This document shows, in pieces, positions 4,376-29,113 of a stretch of 48,446 bases of DNA (the first letter of the stretch is position 1; every line of letters begins with the position of its first letter). A model generated the notes under the pieces. That model was not told where the DNA came from. It was given only the letters and a program-made list of their open reading frames with translations, and ran no database searches. Source of the DNA: an uncultured bacterium (GTDB lineage Bacteria > Bacillota_I > Bacilli_A > RF39 > UBA660); the NCBI GenBank assembly GCA_946643435.1, contig CAMPCD010000006.1, positions 1-48,446 on the forward strand, read 5' to 3'. Made by a program: the position numbers and the translations under genes.

Positions 4376-6406
4376 ATGAAATTATTAAAGAAATTTTTAA
4401 AGTTATTTTTAAAAGATAATCGTGTTATATCAAGATTAGTAAAATTTTATCGATATAATAGAAGTTTCGGTATTTTTAAGACTATCTTTTATATGATTAG
4501 CGATTTATTTCTAAGATATAGGGTAAAGAATAACAAAAACCAAGCGTATAATACTGCACGTATGTTAGGGCAAATAGGTTTTAAAAACTCAAAGATAAAT
4601 TCTTTCTTTTATAATATAGATACTCATAAAGTGTTTTATTCTAAAAAAAGGTATTTAGAAAATTTCACAGTTGACTATAGTGTTATATTAGAAAGTAGTT
4701 TAGAAGAATTAAAACCTAAAAGTGGGTCTCAATATTCTGACGATAAAAATGTTGTAATTGAAGGAATAAATTCATATATAGATCATACTGTTAATTATAT
4801 TTTAAAACTAAATATAGATAATAAAGAAGTTATAATAAAAAATATTCTTTCAATTAAAGATTCTAAAGCAGTTCATTTTGATGAGGCGTTACAAAGAATA
4901 CTATTTTTTAATCAAATAATGTGGCAAACGGGTCATATGCTTGTTGGTCTTGGAAGATTAGATAAAATACTAGCTAAATATTATTATGATGATATTGAAA
5001 ATAAGTATATTACTCAGGAAGAAGCTTCTAAATATATAAAAGATTTCTTATGTATATTGCACGAATACTTTTGGTATAAGAGTAATACTTTACTTGGAGA
5101 TACAGGGCAAATTATTGTATTAGGTGGAAAAGATGAAAAAGGTAATTATTTAGTTAATGATTTAACATATATGTTTATTAACGAATTAAAGAAAATTCAT
5201 TATCCTGATCCTAAAATTTTACTTAGAGTATCGAGAGATATACCAAAAGCGTTGTTAGATGCATCCGTAGATTGCATTAAGACAGGTATAGGGTCTCCTT
5301 TATTTGCAAATGATGATTTGATAATTAACCGCATGATAGAATTTGGATATGATAAGGATGATGCATATAATTATTCGGTTTCTGCCTGTTGGGAACCTTT
5401 AGTTCCTGGTAAAGGAGTAGAACAAAATAACTTAGAAACATTAGTGTTTATGGAACCTTTTAATAGAATGTTAAATAATGAAGAATTAGATTCTATTAAA
5501 AATATTGATGATTTGATAACAAGATACGATAAATATATTGTTGAATATGTCAAAGAAATGGCTGATATGATTAATAACTGGGAATATGAAAAAGAACCAT
5601 ATGTTTCGATTTTTGTAAGTGATTGTGATAAATTAAATGAAGATATTATAGATTGTAGAGGTAAATATAATTATTGTGGATTAACAACCGTATCATTAGG
5701 AAATGTTGTTAATTCAATCTTAAATATTGATAAGTATGTATTTAGAGATAATAAATATACACTTAAAGAATTTAATGAATTAAGAAATAACAATTTTAAC
5801 AACGACAATCATATTTTAAATGATCTTAAGAATAATAGTAAAAGATATGGCCTTGATGATGAAGAAGTTTTAAACTTAAGTAATAGAATTATGAATATGA
5901 TGAGTAAATCAATAAGCAACAATCTAATTAAAGGTGGTAAGGTTAAGATAGGTTATAGTGCACCTTCTTATATTACACATTCTGTTAATCAATATGCATC
6001 TTTTGATGGAAGAAAAAATGGTGAACCATTTATTGTTCATATTTCGTCGGACATAAACGGTTTGCCATATACATCTTTATTTAATTTCGCTAGTCAACTT
6101 GATTATTCAAGTAATAAAATTAATGGTAATGTAATTGATTTTATTGTTAATCCTAGTTTCCTAGAATGTAATTATGATAAGTTTATTGATTTCTTAAGAA
6201 TAAGTATAAGTAATAATTTATTTTATGAGATGCAAATGAATGTTGTAAGTAGTAAAATTTTAATAGCTGCTAAGAAAAATCCAAAATTATATCCAAACTT
6301 AATTGTTAGAGTATGGGGATTTAGTGCGTATTTTAATGATTTACCAGAATCTTATAAGGATGTTTTAATTTTAAGAGCCCAGGAGAGTGAGAAGGGATAT
6401 GAGTAG
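4376..6406 (+). CDS. Glycyl radical enzyme of unknown substrate
   Basis: This 676-residue protein carries the full signature of a glycyl radical enzyme. SACWEPLVPG holds the thiyl-radical Cys338 and, two residues on, Glu340. FDGRKNGEP lies at 543-551. RVWGFSAYFNDL near the C-terminus carries the radical Gly648. A C-x-E site is the dehydratase/C-N lyase/decarboxylase pattern, not the Cys-Cys pair of pyruvate formate-lyase. The protein is shorter than the usual 750-850 residues, and its first 50 residues are basic and hydrophobic (MKLLKKFLKLFLKDNRV), which might bind the membrane. The activase follows at once. Lying between a flippase and a glycosyltransferase, it may act on a glycan building block. 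That is inference; the true substrate is unknown. Confidence 0.85.
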   Translation: MKLLKKFLKLFLKDNRVISRLVKFYRYNRSFGIFKTIFYMISDLFLRYRVKNNKNQAYNTARMLGQIGFKNSKINSFFYNIDTHKVFYSKKRYLENFTVDYSVILESSLEELKPKSGSQYSDDKNVVIEGINSYIDHTVNYILKLNIDNKEVIIKNILSIKDSKAVHFDEALQRILFFNQIMWQTGHMLVGLGRLDKILAKYYYDDIENKYITQEEASKYIKDFLCILHEYFWYKSNTLLGDTGQIIVLGGKDEKGNYLVNDLTYMFINELKKIHYPDPKILLRVSRDIPKALLDASVDCIKTGIGSPLFANDDLIINRMIEFGYDKDDAYNYSVSACWEPLVPGKGVEQNNLETLVFMEPFNRMLNNEELDSIKNIDDLITRYDKYIVEYVKEMADMINNWEYEKEPYVSIFVSDCDKLNEDIIDCRGKYNYCGLTTVSLGNVVNSILNIDKYVFRDNKYTLKEFNELRNNNFNNDNHILNDLKNNSKRYGLDDEEVLNLSNRIMNMMSKSISNNLIKGGKVKIGYSAPSYITHSVNQYASFDGRKNGEPFIVHISSDINGLPYTSLFNFASQLDYSSNKINGNVIDFIVNPSFLECNYDKFIDFLRISISNNLFYEMQMNVVSSKILIAAKKNPKLYPNLIVRVWGFSAYFNDLPESYKDVLILRAQESEKGYE

Positions 6407-7166
6407 TAAAGTTATCGTTTCTAATATCCAACGTTTTTCATTAACAGATGGAGAGGGTATTCGAACTACAGTATTTCTTAAAGGATGTAGTTTAAAATGT
6501 CCTTGGTGTGCAAATCCAGAAAATATAAACCATTCTATAGAAAGGTATCATGATGCGGATAATAATAAAGATGGTGTATTTGGACGTGAAATGACAATAG
6601 ACGAAATATACAGTGAAGTAGTAAAAGATAAAGTATACTATGATAATGGCGGTGTTACATTTTCGGGTGGTGAACCACTTCTATGGATTAATGAATACGA
6701 AGAATTATTAAAAAGATTAAAAGATGAAAATATTAATATATGTTTTGAAACTTCGCTATTTGTAAAAAAAGAATATATGGAATTAGCTTTAAAGTATGCT
6801 GATTCAATGATTGTAGATTTAAAAATATTAGACTCTGATTTAACTAAAAATGTATTAATGAATAATTTGAGTCTCTATTTAGATAATATAGAAACATTAT
6901 TTAAAATTTTTGATCCAAGTAAGATTGTTATTAGAATTCCGGTTTCAAATGAATACGTAATAAGTAATAGTGATAAATATGTAGATTTTATAAAAAAATA
7001 TACACCAAAAAGAGTAGAATTATTTAAACTTCATAATCTTGGTGAAAAGAAGTATCTATTACTTGGCTTAAAGATGAATAAATATGAAGAAGTTTCAGAT
7101 TCTGATTTAGATGATTTTAAAAATAAACTAGAAAGTGTATGTGAAACTGCTTTATTAAAATTTTAG
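6399..7166 (+). CDS. Glycyl radical enzyme activating enzyme (radical SAM)
   Basis: This is a 255-residue radical-SAM activase. It has DGEGIRTTVFLKGC leading into CxxxCxxC (C30, C34, C37) for the 4Fe-4S cluster, followed by ANPEN and the SAM-binding SGGEP at 89-93. It would cut SAM to abstract hydrogen from Gly648 of the preceding enzyme. Only about 25 residues separate the cluster motif from the GREMTIDEIY segment, so the ferredoxin-like insert with two extra clusters, seen in many dehydratase activases, is absent. I start at the ATG preceded by GAAGGG. A GTG twelve bases earlier would have its AGGAG too close. The gene overlaps the radical enzyme by eight bases, indicating coupled translation. 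Confidence 0.88.
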   Translation: MSSKVIVSNIQRFSLTDGEGIRTTVFLKGCSLKCPWCANPENINHSIERYHDADNNKDGVFGREMTIDEIYSEVVKDKVYYDNGGVTFSGGEPLLWINEYEELLKRLKDENINICFETSLFVKKEYMELALKYADSMIVDLKILDSDLTKNVLMNNLSLYLDNIETLFKIFDPSKIVIRIPVSNEYVISNSDKYVDFIKKYTPKRVELFKLHNLGEKKYLLLGLKMNKYEEVSDSDLDDFKNKLESVCETALLKF

Positions 7167-20597: not shown

Positions 20598-21140
20598 ATG
20601 AAACTGTATCATATAGATAGAACAATGACATTAAAAGAAGGAGATATAGTTAATATTAATAAAAATATTGATATAACTGATTCAACATCTGTTGTTGTAT
20701 ATAATAATGTATTAAAGAATTATAAAGATGGTTTATCTTATCATGGTATTGGATATTATTGTAGATCAATTAATGATTGTTCTAGTTTAATTGATGTAAT
20801 ATTTGAATATGAAAGATTATTAAAATATCCTGATAAACTATCTAGATATCAATCATTATTTGCTACTGATAAAGATAATTTATTAAGAATGATAAATAAA
20901 ATAACAGATGGTAGTAATTATAAGATATATGAAATAGATACTGATAATTATGAAAAACATGATATGAATTTATTAAAGGGATGTATACCTGCAGTAATAT
21001 CTGAATTATCTTATTATTATTGGAATAATATTCCTAAAGAATTTTATCCATTAGGATTAATAGATGAAGAACCTCTTTATGAATATTTAATAGCATTGCC
21101 ATGTGTAATTGGTAAGGAAGTTAAGATTGAGGATATATAA
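20598..21140 (+). CDS. Hypothetical protein, possibly DUF2441-like
   Basis: This 180-residue soluble protein begins MKLYHIDRTMTLKEGDIV. It has a central IFEYERLLKYPDKLSRYQSLFA stretch (about residues 75-97), cut here to YPDKLSRYQSLFA. That pattern recalls the DUF2441 family and, more loosely, small ADP-ribosyltransferase-like folds with an N-terminal Y-H strand; this is a weak resemblance from memory. Acidic and aromatic residues dominate the C-terminus. TAGGAG lies ten bases before the ATG, and it follows rmlA by 28 bases, so it may share its transcript. It is immediately upstream of the reverse transcriptase locus but has no visible promoter link to it. The function is unknown. Confidence 0.6.
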   Translation: MKLYHIDRTMTLKEGDIVNINKNIDITDSTSVVVYNNVLKNYKDGLSYHGIGYYCRSINDCSSLIDVIFEYERLLKYPDKLSRYQSLFATDKDNLLRMINKITDGSNYKIYEIDTDNYEKHDMNLLKGCIPAVISELSYYYWNNIPKEFYPLGLIDEEPLYEYLIALPCVIGKEVKIEDI

Positions 21141-21180: not shown

Positions 21181-21208
21181 TTGACATTAATAATTTGAAG
21201 AGTATAAT
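21181..21208 (+). promoter_or_regulatory. Consensus promoter of the RT-associated ncRNA
   Basis: TTGACA, a 16-base spacer and TATAAT form one of the best sigma-A-type promoters in the window. Transcription would start near 21215, about 300 bases before the reverse transcriptase ATG. The promoter therefore makes a long structured leader or separate RNA, unlike the near-leaderless promoters used elsewhere here. Confidence 0.8.
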
Positions 21209-21214
21209 AATAAT

Positions 21215-21496
21215 TGCCATGGTAAATTGTACTATGTGTTTACAATGTTAATTGTCAATATTATATTGATAATTATTGTTATGTTAAAGTTAACGTTCAT
21301 ATATGAACCACCTCGCTTTGACAGTATAGTTATTAATGTGAAGAATAATAAATCCTTTACTATATTAATTATATCAAACTTAATAATGAGGTAGCAGCAT
21401 TGCAAAGAACTGAGTATATTTTAATATGAAGAATTGAAAATTGAAAGGTTATTAATGAACACATCTATAAGGGAGGCTGCATCCTAGATGTGTTTC
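21215..21496 (+). ncRNA. Structured ncRNA upstream of the reverse transcriptase (DRT2-like template candidate)
   Basis: This fills most of the 373-base gap between the small protein and the reverse transcriptase. Hairpins visible by eye, in order: ATTGTA/TACAAT (21226-21246); a ten-base stem 21250-21259 with 21265-21274 (one G-U, loop ATTAT); the perfect palindrome GTTCATATATGAAC at 21295-21308; AGTATAGT pairing with ACTATATT at about 21323-21366; a possible long-range pair ACCTC (about 21309-21313) with GAGGT (about 21388-21392); and a terminal nine-base stem AACACATCT/AGATGTGTT (21458-21466 with 21486-21494). The last ends about 20 bases before the RT start. The size, about 280 nt, and the position fit ncRNAs of DRT2-type defence systems. 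The 40 bases before the promoter show nothing clear. Confidence 0.6.
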
Positions 21497-21513
21497 TTTA
21501 AATTGGTGGGATT

Positions 21514-22833
21514 ATGGATAAAATATTTAAAGAAAAGAATTATCAACATATAGACAAAAAAATAAAAATCGATGATGTAATAAATATAGTTAAAAATCCT
21601 AATTTTGTTTTGAAACATGCTTTTTATCCATTTATTAGTTACACAATTACTATGCATAAATATGTTAAACGTAGCAAAAAAACTTATGAAAGGAAAGAAA
21701 AAAGTAGGCCAATAAAGTATGCATCTCATATTGATAGGTATATATACCAATGGTATTCTCATTTACTAAATGATAAGTATAATGATTATGTATTAAAAAA
21801 TGATATTAATAATAGCGTGATTGCATATAGAACATGCCTTAAAGGAAAGACAAATATAGAGTTTTCAAGAAAAGCTTTTGACTATATTAAGAAAACAAAT
21901 GGTTGTTATATTTTAGTTAGTGATTTGTCTAATTTCTTTGATAAAATTGATCATAAAAAATTAAAGAATAATTTATCTATTGTTCTAAATCAAAATCCAC
22001 TACCAGATGACTATTATAAAATCTATAAATCAATGACTAAATATTCTTACATAGAAAAAGCTGATATTATAGCTTATCTATTAGATAATAATATAGAGAG
22101 TGAAAAATCGCTGAAAAAATGTAATAGTTTATTAGATAAAACAGAATGGAAAATAGTAAAGAAAAAGTTAAAAAATAAAATAATAAAAAATGATAAAAGT
22201 TATGGGATTCCACAAGGTTCACCATTGAGTGGAATATTTGCTAATATTTATATGATAGATTTTGATAAGTACATAAGAAATTATGTTGATAATAAACATG
22301 GATTATACATGCGATATTCGGATGATATAATTATCATAATTCCAAGTGATGAAATTGAATCGATTTCTGAAATTTGGAATATAATTCAACATATAAGTAA
22401 GGAGTATAATACAATGGAATTAAACATTGAAAAAACTTCAGGATTTTTATATAATGGAGAATCAATTAAATCACTCCATGAAAATATTTATAATATGCGT
22501 AATGGTAATACCTTTGTAAGTTACTTAGGATTTTCATTTGATGGCAAAAATATAAAATTTAGAGATAAAACTTTGACCAAATTTTATTATAAACTGTATA
22601 GAAAAATAGATGAAATGATAGCTCGTGAAAATTTACGAATAGAAAAAGGAAAAAAGAAACATACGAAAATAGATAAACATCAAATTATTAAGAATGCCAT
22701 TAATAAAAATAATAAAACAAGAAAATTTATTGATTATGTAGATAAAGCTATAAAAGTTTATCCTAATGAAAAGTATATTGTTGAATTTAGAAATAGTGTT
22801 AAATCTAAGATTTTTGACAGATTTAATAAATAA
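21514..22833 (+). CDS. Stand-alone reverse transcriptase, putative DRT2/UG2-like antiphage enzyme
   Basis: This 439-residue protein is a reverse transcriptase with no extra domain. RPIKYASHIDRYIYQW (65-80) is an RT0/1-like element. Motif A SDLSNFFDKID holds Asp137, motif B is GIPQGSPLSG (231-240), motif C is MRYSDD with Asp270 and Asp271, motif D LNIEKTSGF and motif E SYLGFSFDG. A basic helical tail of about 90 residues follows. It lacks the maturase and endonuclease parts of group II intron enzymes and the retron VTG element, and no template/variable repeat pair is visible. It most resembles the 'unknown group' RTs linked to phage defence, with UG2/DRT2 the nearest by size, single-gene layout and upstream ncRNA. 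GGTGGG precedes the ATG. The subclass call is from memory of motifs. Confidence 0.8.
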   Translation: MDKIFKEKNYQHIDKKIKIDDVINIVKNPNFVLKHAFYPFISYTITMHKYVKRSKKTYERKEKSRPIKYASHIDRYIYQWYSHLLNDKYNDYVLKNDINNSVIAYRTCLKGKTNIEFSRKAFDYIKKTNGCYILVSDLSNFFDKIDHKKLKNNLSIVLNQNPLPDDYYKIYKSMTKYSYIEKADIIAYLLDNNIESEKSLKKCNSLLDKTEWKIVKKKLKNKIIKNDKSYGIPQGSPLSGIFANIYMIDFDKYIRNYVDNKHGLYMRYSDDIIIIIPSDEIESISEIWNIIQHISKEYNTMELNIEKTSGFLYNGESIKSLHENIYNMRNGNTFVSYLGFSFDGKNIKFRDKTLTKFYYKLYRKIDEMIARENLRIEKGKKKHTKIDKHQIIKNAINKNNKTRKFIDYVDKAIKVYPNEKYIVEFRNSVKSKIFDRFNK

Positions 22834-22862
22834 GAATATATATAATATTTGTGATATAAATA

Positions 22863-22888
22863 AAATACCTAGGGTAACCTAGGTATTT
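22863..22888. terminator. Bidirectional terminator between the RT and HIT genes
   Basis: A perfect 11-base-pair stem (AAATACCTAGG / CCTAGGTATTT) with loop GTAA has A/T-rich flanks on both sides. It sits between two convergent genes and can serve both. Confidence 0.85.
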
Positions 22889-26374: not shown

Positions 26375-29113
26375 ATGTTTTGTAAGTCGTGTGGTGCTGG
26401 ATTAACTGGAGAAGAAATTAATTGTCCAATATGTGGTAAACAAGTAAGAGAATTAAAAGAAGGAGAAGAAGTTAAAACAAATACTTTTGATCCACTTTCA
26501 ATTCCTACTACAAGTGAAATCAATAATCAAAATAAATCAAATGTTAATTATTTTAATTTAATAGTTGATTTTATAAAGAAACATAAAAAAATATTTATAA
26601 TATGTTCTTCTTTTATATTTGTATTAATTATAGGAATAATATTATTTAATTGTTTATATGACTTTACAAAATTATCATGGGATGAAGAAAAAGGAGACTA
26701 TAATGTTAATATTACAACTCCTACAACCTTAACACTTGTTGCAAGAGCATTTGATAAGCATGATAATGTAATAGAAAATATTAGATTTGAAGTATCTGAT
26801 GGTAATTTAGCTGTTGATGGTTTAACTGCTACATGGAAATTACCTAATAAAGATGGAAACTATACTATTACAGCAATAGCACCAAGTGGTAAAAAGATAG
26901 AGAAAAAAATAAGTGTATATGACTTAAAAGAATCAAATATACTATATGGTGTTAATAAGGATGAGATAACTGAAGAAACTGATAATGATGCTGATGGTAT
27001 AACTGATTTAAAAGAGAAGGAATTAGGCACTAATCCTTATTCATCTGATACAGATAATGATGGCATACCTGATAAAGTAGAAATAGATAATACTAAAACA
27101 GACCCATTAAAAGCTGATACAGATGAAGATGGTATATTAGATGGTAATGAAATAGATTTAGGATTAGATCCATTAAAGAAGGATTCCAAAGGTGATGGAG
27201 TAAATGATTCTGATAGAGAATTAACATATACTATCAATAATGAATCATTAGGTGTTACTATTACCATAAATGGTAAAGGTAATATAGCATCAACTGGTGT
27301 TGATACTTTAAATAATAATATATTTAATAATATGGATGGTTTATTAGATAAAGTATTTAATTTCTATTCAAATGGAACTTTTACTTCTGCTGAAATAAAG
27401 ATTAAATATAATATAGATGAAATAACTAAAAAAGGATTAAATGAAGATAAATTATCATTATATTATTTTAATGAAGAAACTAAAAAGTTAGATAAAGTTA
27501 ATACTACTGTAGATAAAGAAAATAAAGTATTAATTGTAACCTTAAATCATTTCTCTAAATATGTTATAGGTGATGATACAGTTACAAATGATAATTATAC
27601 TAATGATATATTATTTGTAATAGATAATTCTATATCTATGTATTCATCAAAACAAATGGAAGAAAAGGGATATGATTATTATACAGGTGCTGATGGTAAT
27701 GATTCAGAGTTTAAAAGAATATCATTAACAAATTCTGCTATAGATAAGTTTACTGGTAACTATAGATTCAGTGTAGCTGAGTTTGCTGGTTCTTATAAGA
27801 ATTTACAATCATTTACTACTGATAGAGAAAGTGTTAAAAAAGCATCTAATAGTATTAAAGATGATTGGCATGTATCAACTGATGGTACTGAAATATCTGT
27901 AGCTTTAAATAATGCTATTAATGATTTTAGTGAAGATGAAAATGGACATTTTATTTTATTAATGACTGATGGTAAAGATACGAGCTATTCTTTCTCATCA
28001 TCAAAAGATACAATAATAAAACAAGCTAAGGAAAATGATGTTCATATATGTGTTATTGGATTAGGTAAATCATTAGATGATAATATATTAAAAGAAATAG
28101 CCACATCTACTGGATGTGTATATAATTCAGTAAGTGATGCATCTGGTTTAGATGAAATATATAACATAGTAGGAGCAAAGATTAACTATAATTTAGTTGA
28201 TACTAATAATGATGGTTTAACTGATGGTACTATAATAGCTGATTCAGGATTTATTACTAAAAGAGATGGATTTAGTTTCTCTAATTATAGATCAACATTA
28301 TCTGAAAATGGTCATTGTTATGGTATGGCATTCTTTGTATCATTATACTATCAACATAAATTACCTTTAAAAGAAGATGCTAAACATACTGCTAAATTAG
28401 GTATTATATATCCATATGATTCACAGGGATATAATTTGAAGAATACATATTTTAGTGATCAAACAAAGAATTTGTATGATTATAAAACTGATAATGAAAT
28501 AATGGAAGTATTCCAAGCAGTAGAAAAAGATCCTAACTATCGAGATAGAATTGAAAATAGAGTATGGAAACTTAAAGATGAATATAGAAAACAATATGAA
28601 GAATTAGGATTCAAAATAGTTGAAAAAGAAGTGTCTGGATATGATGACTTTGATAAATATGAATCTGTATTATTAGATGAAAATAGCAGTGACTTTAAAC
28701 TATATGATAATGAAGATTATCAATTATATAATGCTATATGGTATTTATTCATACATCAAAATCAAATGAAGACTACATCATTTAGTACAAAACCAGATCA
28801 AGCCTTTGAAGAATTACAAACTAATTTGTCTAATAATATTCCACAACCTATTAGTATAGGTGATCATGAAATCAATGCTTTAAGATTAATCCAAGATAAT
28901 AATGATTCTAATAAGTTTAAGATAGAAGTATATGATAATAACTATCCAGGTGAAACTAGATATGTTACTATGACTAGAAATAAGTACTCTAAATTAGCAT
29001 TAGATTTTACAGCTTGGACTAATGATTATCATTATGATTTCACATATGATAAAGATAATGATGGTACTGAAGATGATATAAGTTTAGATTTATCATATAT
29101 CGATATAGAATAG
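26375..29113 (+). CDS. Zinc-ribbon, TSP3-repeat, VWA and papain-like peptidase surface protein
   Basis: This 912-residue mosaic protein has, in order: a cytoplasmic zinc ribbon (Cys3, Cys6, Cys17, Cys20); one transmembrane helix (about 72-95); a beta-sandwich (about 110-190); calcium-binding TSP3-like repeats (about 205-285, several DxDxDG units such as DNDADGI and DTDNDGI); a beta region to about 400; and a VWA domain with MIDAS DNSIS (Asp417, Ser419, Ser421) and LMTDGKD. A C-terminal region follows with GHCYGM (Cys648), GDHEINA (His831) and YDNNYP (Asp854), an order fitting a papain-like cysteine peptidase. The bulk should lie outside the cell. It may bind and cut an adhesive or host substrate; the role is unproven. 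Confidence 0.75.
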   Translation: MFCKSCGAGLTGEEINCPICGKQVRELKEGEEVKTNTFDPLSIPTTSEINNQNKSNVNYFNLIVDFIKKHKKIFIICSSFIFVLIIGIILFNCLYDFTKLSWDEEKGDYNVNITTPTTLTLVARAFDKHDNVIENIRFEVSDGNLAVDGLTATWKLPNKDGNYTITAIAPSGKKIEKKISVYDLKESNILYGVNKDEITEETDNDADGITDLKEKELGTNPYSSDTDNDGIPDKVEIDNTKTDPLKADTDEDGILDGNEIDLGLDPLKKDSKGDGVNDSDRELTYTINNESLGVTITINGKGNIASTGVDTLNNNIFNNMDGLLDKVFNFYSNGTFTSAEIKIKYNIDEITKKGLNEDKLSLYYFNEETKKLDKVNTTVDKENKVLIVTLNHFSKYVIGDDTVTNDNYTNDILFVIDNSISMYSSKQMEEKGYDYYTGADGNDSEFKRISLTNSAIDKFTGNYRFSVAEFAGSYKNLQSFTTDRESVKKASNSIKDDWHVSTDGTEISVALNNAINDFSEDENGHFILLMTDGKDTSYSFSSSKDTIIKQAKENDVHICVIGLGKSLDDNILKEIATSTGCVYNSVSDASGLDEIYNIVGAKINYNLVDTNNDGLTDGTIIADSGFITKRDGFSFSNYRSTLSENGHCYGMAFFVSLYYQHKLPLKEDAKHTAKLGIIYPYDSQGYNLKNTYFSDQTKNLYDYKTDNEIMEVFQAVEKDPNYRDRIENRVWKLKDEYRKQYEELGFKIVEKEVSGYDDFDKYESVLLDENSSDFKLYDNEDYQLYNAIWYLFIHQNQMKTTSFSTKPDQAFEELQTNLSNNIPQPISIGDHEINALRLIQDNNDSNKFKIEVYDNNYPGETRYVTMTRNKYSKLALDFTAWTNDYHYDFTYDKDNDGTEDDISLDLSYIDIE

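What the first reader, a model, noticed from the sequence alone, without database searches (positions are those of the whole stretch)
21181..22888. Candidate DRT2-like antiphage reverse transcriptase with its own ncRNA
A lone 439-residue reverse transcriptase with intact catalytic Asp137 and YSDD is preceded by a consensus promoter and about 280 nt of structured non-coding DNA, and is closed by a strong terminator. Established knowledge: DRT2 (UG2) systems consist of one RT and an upstream ncRNA that is copied by rolling-circle reverse transcription to protect against phage. The layout here is the same, but the organism is a very AT-rich Bacillota-like bacterium and the sequences look divergent. 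Subclass assignment is inference.
Basis: partly seen in the sequence, partly recalled or inferred. Interest (0 to 1): 0.85.

Follow-up and report, generated by a model that had tools for sequence, protein, structure and literature searches.

The report
DRT2 antiphage system with hidden neo gene
A gut Bacillota bacterium carries a known type of anti-phage reverse transcriptase (DRT2) whose upstream RNA appears to hold a scrambled gene that would become readable only after the enzyme copies the RNA into tandem repeats; almost all the recognised hallmarks are present, in a branch where the discoverers may have found that gene hard to identify.

Summary
Window 21514-22833 encodes an intact 439-aa reverse transcriptase, preceded by a promoter and a structured non-coding region and closed by a terminator. 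By profile, tree and predicted fold it is a DRT2 (UG2) enzyme, in a Bacillota branch that is sister to the Klebsiella type system. On the strand antisense to the RNA, a perfect -35 (21258-21253) and a perfect -10 (21373-21368) lie in the wrong order. Joining copies of a 138-nt unit (46 codons) brings them together with exactly 17 bp between them and leaves a stop-free frame with an ATG behind a ribosome-binding site. The full signature appeared in 0 of 20,000 shuffles. The same split promoter is perfect in 46 distinct homologous loci; the unit is divisible by three in 44 and stop-free in 40. The RNA also has a terminal hairpin and a covarying pseudoknot, as in KpDRT2. Differences from the type system: the ACA...ACA jump repeats are not met (AAT here, AATGT in sisters), the unit is longer, and the start codon lies 67 nt past the -10. 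It is a new, divergent member of a known kind. Nothing was tested in cells.

The parts
21181..21208 (+). promoter of ncRNA and RT (TTGACA, 16 bp, TATAAT)
   Evidence: 12/12 consensus; -10 aligned and kept in L030-L032
21215..21513 (+). ncRNA region (5' end inferred from the promoter; 3' end not mapped)
   Evidence: conserved and alignable in sister loci; covarying pairs
21217..21239 (+). 5' handle hairpin of the ncRNA
   Evidence: predicted consensus helix, one compensatory pair among three sequences
21244..21381 (-). predicted template / neo repeat unit, 138 nt (junction placed at the shared AAT)
   Evidence: stop-free across the junction, 46 codons; 17-bp promoter spacing fixes the length
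21253..21258 (-). -35 of the split neo promoter (TTGACA, antisense)
21368..21373 (-). -10 of the split neo promoter (TATAAT, antisense)
21298..21300 (-). predicted neo start codon ATG, 7 nt after GAGGTGG
   Evidence: SD and ATG aligned in L030-L032
21308..21314 (-). predicted neo ribosome-binding site GAGGTGG
21394..21398 (+). pseudoknot 5' strand GCAGC (pairs with 21476-21480)
   Evidence: GCGGA:TCCGC in L031 keeps the pairing; same pseudoknot in 29 relatives
21458..21494 (+). terminal hairpin of the ncRNA; its loop holds the pseudoknot 3' strand GCTGC 21476-21480
21514..22833 (+). DRT2 reverse transcriptase, 439 aa, D137 and YSDD intact
22863..22888 (.). bidirectional intrinsic terminator between RT and HIT gene

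Best explanation
This is a DRT2 antiphage system. One promoter makes a roughly 300-nt pseudoknotted ncRNA and the RT mRNA (shown as sequence; expression inferred). The RT binds the ncRNA and copies its central template (about 21242-21381) again and again, jumping from the template's 5' end back to its 3' end (inferred by homology). The antisense repeat cDNA, once double-stranded, carries a promoter absent from the genome: the -35 of one copy and the -10 of the next, 17 bp apart. That promoter would transcribe neo, a stop-free frame of 46 codons per repeat that starts at an ATG behind GAGGTGG (shown as sequence). The hydrophobic repeat protein Neo would stop growth of infected cells (inferred from KpDRT2).
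For: RT: Drt2 at E 5e-121; PDB KpDRT2 9c0i at E 1e-59 over residues 5-415; predicted fold (pLDDT 89) matches 9c0i at TM 0.83/0.85; the tree puts it in the Bacillota branch beside the KpDRT2 branch. Neo: a 12/12 split promoter with 17-bp spacing, 138 nt = 46 codons, stop-free, with SD and in-frame ATG; 0 of 20,000 shuffles give all of it. Across homologues, 46 distinct loci have the perfect split promoter, 44 divisible by three and 40 stop-free, against 0.3 loci per shuffled set. At the promoter-defined unit length the two flanks share 3.8 nt on average against 1.8-2.7 at other offsets, and Kp-branch loci L112-L115 give 117 nt and ACA as published, a positive control. RNA: 19 of 22 pairs covary in 29 relatives, including all 7 pseudoknot pairs; the window clade keeps hairpin and pseudoknot with compensatory changes; a model trained without the window clade finds 21368-21516 as its best place. 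Published mechanism: PMC12039810, PMC11100668.
Against: The window's own jump repeat is only AAT (3 nt, near chance), not ACA. The NCBIfam score is below its equivalog cut-off. Sister L032 has a 152-nt unit whose frame ends after one repeat, so endlessness is not universal in this clade. The covariance model hit in the window is weak (20.5 bits, filters off) and is missed with default filters. In pairs of related units, third-codon changes exceed second-codon ones only mildly (300/255/340). No expression or defence data exist.
Confidence: 0.88

Rival explanations
1. A DRT2 RT with its ncRNA that makes repeat cDNA, but whose effector is the DNA itself (as poly-dA in DRT9), the open frame being incidental.
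For: Related class 2 RTs act through DNA products (PMC12483538). Open frames come easily here: 1741 of 2750 in-frame unit choices leave some frame stop-free.
Against: Divisibility by three, stop-free frames and SD-ATG recur with the split promoter across 46 distinct loci, and the full signature is absent from 20,000 shuffles of this region.
Confidence: 0.07
2. Discrete-ORF version: Neo acts as a single-repeat peptide of about 46-51 aa in this clade, and endlessness is incidental. This is a variant of the best explanation, not exclusive of it.
For: In L032 the frame is exactly one unit (50 aa) and ends in TAATG overlapping the next start; the peptides align end to end with the window's.
Against: Rests on one metagenome-derived sequence that may be an error or decay; window and L030/L031 are stop-free.
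Confidence: 0.15
3. Degenerate or silent DRT2 remnant.
For: Patchy: only 3 of 288 order-level genomes carry one with a full-length match.
Against: RT intact with all catalytic residues; promoter, RNA pairs, neo frame and terminator all intact.
Confidence: 0.04
4. The RT is a group II intron, retron or DGR enzyme.
For: All share the RT core; group II RTs are the nearest non-UG fold.
Against: The Drt2 model outscores every family of another name by more than 300 bits; the Rfam scan found no intron or other known RNA part; fold and tree agree with DRT2.
Confidence: 0.01

Closest known systems
KpDRT2 (Klebsiella pneumoniae DRT2/UG2; PDB 9c0i, PMC12039810, PMC11100668)
   Same: RT fold over full length; ncRNA directly upstream, about 280-300 nt; pseudoknot; antisense split TTGACA/TATAAT joined at 17 bp; unit divisible by three and stop-free; SD and ATG downstream; hydrophobic product
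   Different: RT about 30% identical; YSDD not YCDD; unit 138 nt not 120; jump repeat AAT (AATGT in sisters) not ACA; start codon 67 nt after the -10 rather than about 13
L030/L031 and L032 (Tenericutes / Clostridia / Candidatus Faecimonas MAG loci, RT 56-61% identical)
   Same: same ncRNA layout, SD-ATG, SKRGGS motif in Neo
   Different: unit 153 nt (L030/L031, stop-free); unit 152 nt with a one-repeat ORF (L032)
DRT9 (UG28)
   Same: class 2 UG RT with upstream structured ncRNA
   Different: makes poly-dA from a U-rich template as a hexamer (PMC12483538); fold TM only 0.42 to the window model

Membership tests
DRT2 (UG2) | RT of the UG2 clade | tested here: met
   PADLOC Drt2 E 5e-121; tree with KpDRT2 branch; NCBIfam best hit but below its cut-off
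DRT2 (UG2) | RT-only protein with the DRT2 fold (straight extended thumb, finger insertion) | tested here: met
   AF2 model matches 9c0i over full length, TM 0.83/0.85; the individual insertion was not inspected
DRT2 (UG2) | ncRNA immediately upstream, sharing the promoter | tested here: met
   (sequence level; transcription not shown)
DRT2 (UG2) | pseudoknotted 3' scaffold | tested here: met
DRT2 (UG2) | ACA repeats flanking the template (seen in close KpDRT2 relatives; not clearly a family-wide criterion) | tested here: not met
   AAT shared in the window, AATGT in L030/L031, mostly ATTG in other Bacillota; ACA only in the Kp branch
DRT2 (UG2) | split antisense promoter restored at the repeat junction, 17 bp | tested here: met
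DRT2 (UG2) | repeat unit divisible by three with stop-free frame | tested here: met
   138 nt, 46 codons
DRT2 (UG2) | tandem repeat cDNA made on infection; Neo arrests growth; phage defence | not testable with these tools
   needs wet-lab work

The most novel reading that the evidence does not exclude
The neo mechanism runs through the whole divergent Bacillota DRT2 branch; the discoverers reported that Neo was hard to annotate in divergent clades and suspected other mechanisms. What changed is the jump signal (clade-specific 3-6 nt repeats such as ATTG, GTATT, GATTG, AATGT in place of ACA), unit length (up to about 170 nt) and start position; in at least one window-clade relative the product may be discrete tandem ORFs joined by TAATG rather than an endless chain.
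Probability: 0.65. Interest if true: 0.65.

Novelty: new member of a known kind. Interest (0 to 1): 0.5.

Why it matters
Tang et al. [quoted passage not shown] Defining the unit by the 17-bp promoter spacing instead of the ACA motif gives a concrete neo prediction for this locus and dozens of Bacillota homologues. That makes two questions directly testable: which sequence guides template jumping, and whether an endless frame is needed. Whether their divergent clades include this one could not be checked, because their supplementary figures and the final journal version were not held.

Tried and rejected
(1) Viral-contig scan with the single protein: nothing; the alignment-based scan worked. 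(2) First alignment of the window with L002 used the wrong strand and is void. (3) Unit of 141 nt (AATG shared, 4 nt) rejected: it gives 20-bp promoter spacing. (4) An automatic scoring run preferred a 176-nt unit for the window (promoter 10/12, not divisible by three); rejected in favour of the 12/12, 138-nt unit. (5) L032 first looked broken because the junction was not placed at its own flanking repeat; with the AATGT junction it reads as a one-unit ORF. (6) L037/L040/L064 (171 nt) remain unresolved. (8) The ThsC2-like PADLOC hit of the neighbouring HIT protein is a generic HIT-family match, not taken as Thoeris.

Full report
OBSERVATION. The ORF 21514-22833 (+) encodes 439 aa. The promoter at 21181-21208 is a perfect TTGACA-16-TATAAT and a bidirectional terminator stands at 22863-22888. 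D137 and Y268-S-D-D271 are intact, and D137, Y268, D270 and D271 are invariant in an alignment of 36 relatives. Promoter-like matches are common by chance in this AT-rich DNA (24 found, 23.7 expected), but this one is 12/12 and its -10 is kept in sister loci. Rfam has nothing here.

THE ENZYME. PADLOC gives Drt2 at E 5e-121 and 403 bits; the best family of another name scores about 75 bits. NCBIfam gives Drt2 at 353 bits, below its equivalog cut-off of 390, as one would expect for a divergent member. By sequence the closest solved structure is KpDRT2 (E 1e-59). An AlphaFold2 model built from 36 family members (mean pLDDT 89) matches 9c0i over the whole chain (TM 0.83/0.85), and the next family, DRT9, only at 0.42. 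In a tree of 95 RTs (quick search, SH-aLRT support) the window forms a fully supported group with L030, L031 and L032 (56-61% identical) inside a large, mostly Bacillota branch; KpDRT2 sits in the neighbouring, mostly proteobacterial branch.

THE HIDDEN GENE. In KpDRT2 a 120-nt template in the ncRNA is copied into tandem repeats. Joining the repeats brings an antisense -35 and -10 together at 17 bp and opens an endless frame, neo (PMC12039810; PMC11100668). The window has the same arrangement. Antisense TTGACA lies at 21258-21253 and antisense TATAAT at 21373-21368, out of order. A unit of 138 nt joins them at 17 bp. The unit is 46 codons, and one frame has no stop across the junction. The joined promoter reads TTGACA-ATTAACATTAAGTTTGA-TATAAT, and the repeat protein is (MNVNFNITIIINIILTINIKFDIINIVKDLLFFTLITILSKRGGSY)n. 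Its ATG (21300-21298) follows GAGGTGG by 7 nt. The unit is hydrophobic (GRAVY 1.05), as reported for Kp Neo. In 20,000 dinucleotide shuffles of this 330-nt region, 265 had the split promoter, 95 also had a length divisible by three, 15 also had an open frame, and none had the SD-ATG as well.

HOMOLOGUES. The same test was run on the 330 nt upstream of 95 DRT2 genes. A perfect split promoter occurs in 49 loci, against 0.3 per shuffled set. After removing identical units there are 46; 44 are divisible by three and 40 stop-free under a fixed junction, and L062 and L058 also become stop-free when the junction follows their own flanking repeat (for L058 with a -10 of 5/6 and a 156-nt unit). Unit lengths run from 111 to 171 nt. 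At the promoter-defined length, the two flanks share a run of 3.8 nt on average, against 1.8-2.7 at sixteen neighbouring offsets. In the Kp branch (L112-L115) that shared run is ACA and the unit is 117 nt, exactly as published, which validates the method. In the Bacillota branch it is mostly ATTG, GTATT or GATTG, in L030/L031 AATGT, and in the window only AAT. Loci are related to one another, so these counts are not independent events.

THE RNA. In 29 Bacillota ncRNA 3' domains that exclude the window clade, a terminal hairpin and a 7-bp pseudoknot are 97.5% paired. Nineteen of 22 pairs show changes on both sides, including all seven pseudoknot pairs, and sliding the partner by 1-3 columns destroys the signal. 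The window has the equivalent parts: hairpin arms 21458-21467 / 21485-21494 and pseudoknot GCAGC 21394-21398 with GCTGC 21476-21480. L031 has GCGGA:TCCGC at the same places. A covariance model from those 29 sequences, none from this clade, picks 21368-21516 as the best place in 2.8 kb (20.5 bits, E 0.0026; next 7.3 bits), although the hit is too weak for the default filters over the whole window.

CONTEXT. The locus lies between a polysaccharide cluster and a HIT gene followed by NUDIX and serS. In a relative of the same genus (G633) the HIT gene is preceded by ftsA-like and ftsZ-like genes (read by eye), and no DRT2 or polysaccharide genes of the window are present there. Only 3 of 288 genomes of the order carry a DRT2 with a full-length match. 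This is the patchy pattern of an accessory defence gene.

MECHANISM AND ITS LIMITS. Shown here by sequence: an intact DRT2 RT, a conserved pseudoknotted RNA, the split promoter, the open frame and the translation start. Inferred from KpDRT2: RNA binding, priming, jumping, second-strand synthesis, Neo expression on infection and growth arrest. The weakest link in the window is the jump signal. Sister L032 is an instructive exception: with the AATGT junction its unit is 152 nt and its ORF is one repeat long, ending in TAATG at the next start. It may be real translational coupling, a sequencing error or decay.

NOVELTY. The kind of system is known. The locus itself, and a neo prediction for this branch, extend it; the discoverers said Neo annotation was difficult in divergent clades and suspected other mechanisms. 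I rate it a new member of a known kind, with variant features stated in the novel case.

Noticed in passing
L032:2670-2997: Sister DRT2 locus whose neo unit is 152 nt; the ORF spans exactly one repeat (50 aa) and ends in TAATG overlapping the next start codon, suggesting discrete tandem ORFs rather than an endless one.
   Followed up: partly
L037, L040, L064 upstream regions: Perfect split promoter with a 171-nt unit but no stop-free frame; unit or junction probably not yet rightly placed.
   Followed up: no
L060, L075 upstream regions: Strong SD-ATG antisense to the ncRNA but no convincing consensus -35/-10 pair; may use another junction promoter.
   Followed up: no
20598-21140: 180-aa protein with only a sub-threshold DUF2441 match (E 0.051), found at low similarity in one of ten congeners; unknown function just upstream of the DRT2 promoter.
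   Followed up: partly
4376-7166: By eye, a glycyl-radical (pyruvate formate-lyase-like) enzyme and its activating enzyme in the middle of a polysaccharide gene cluster; unusual company, not searched.
   Followed up: no
26375-29113: 912-aa protein with a zinc-ribbon-like start, thrombospondin-type-3-like repeats and a vWA-like region, read by eye; no PADLOC match.
   Followed up: partly
L028 (Clostridioides phage HGP05), L027, L029: DRT2 RTs with neo-type split promoters on phage or prophage records.
   Followed up: partly
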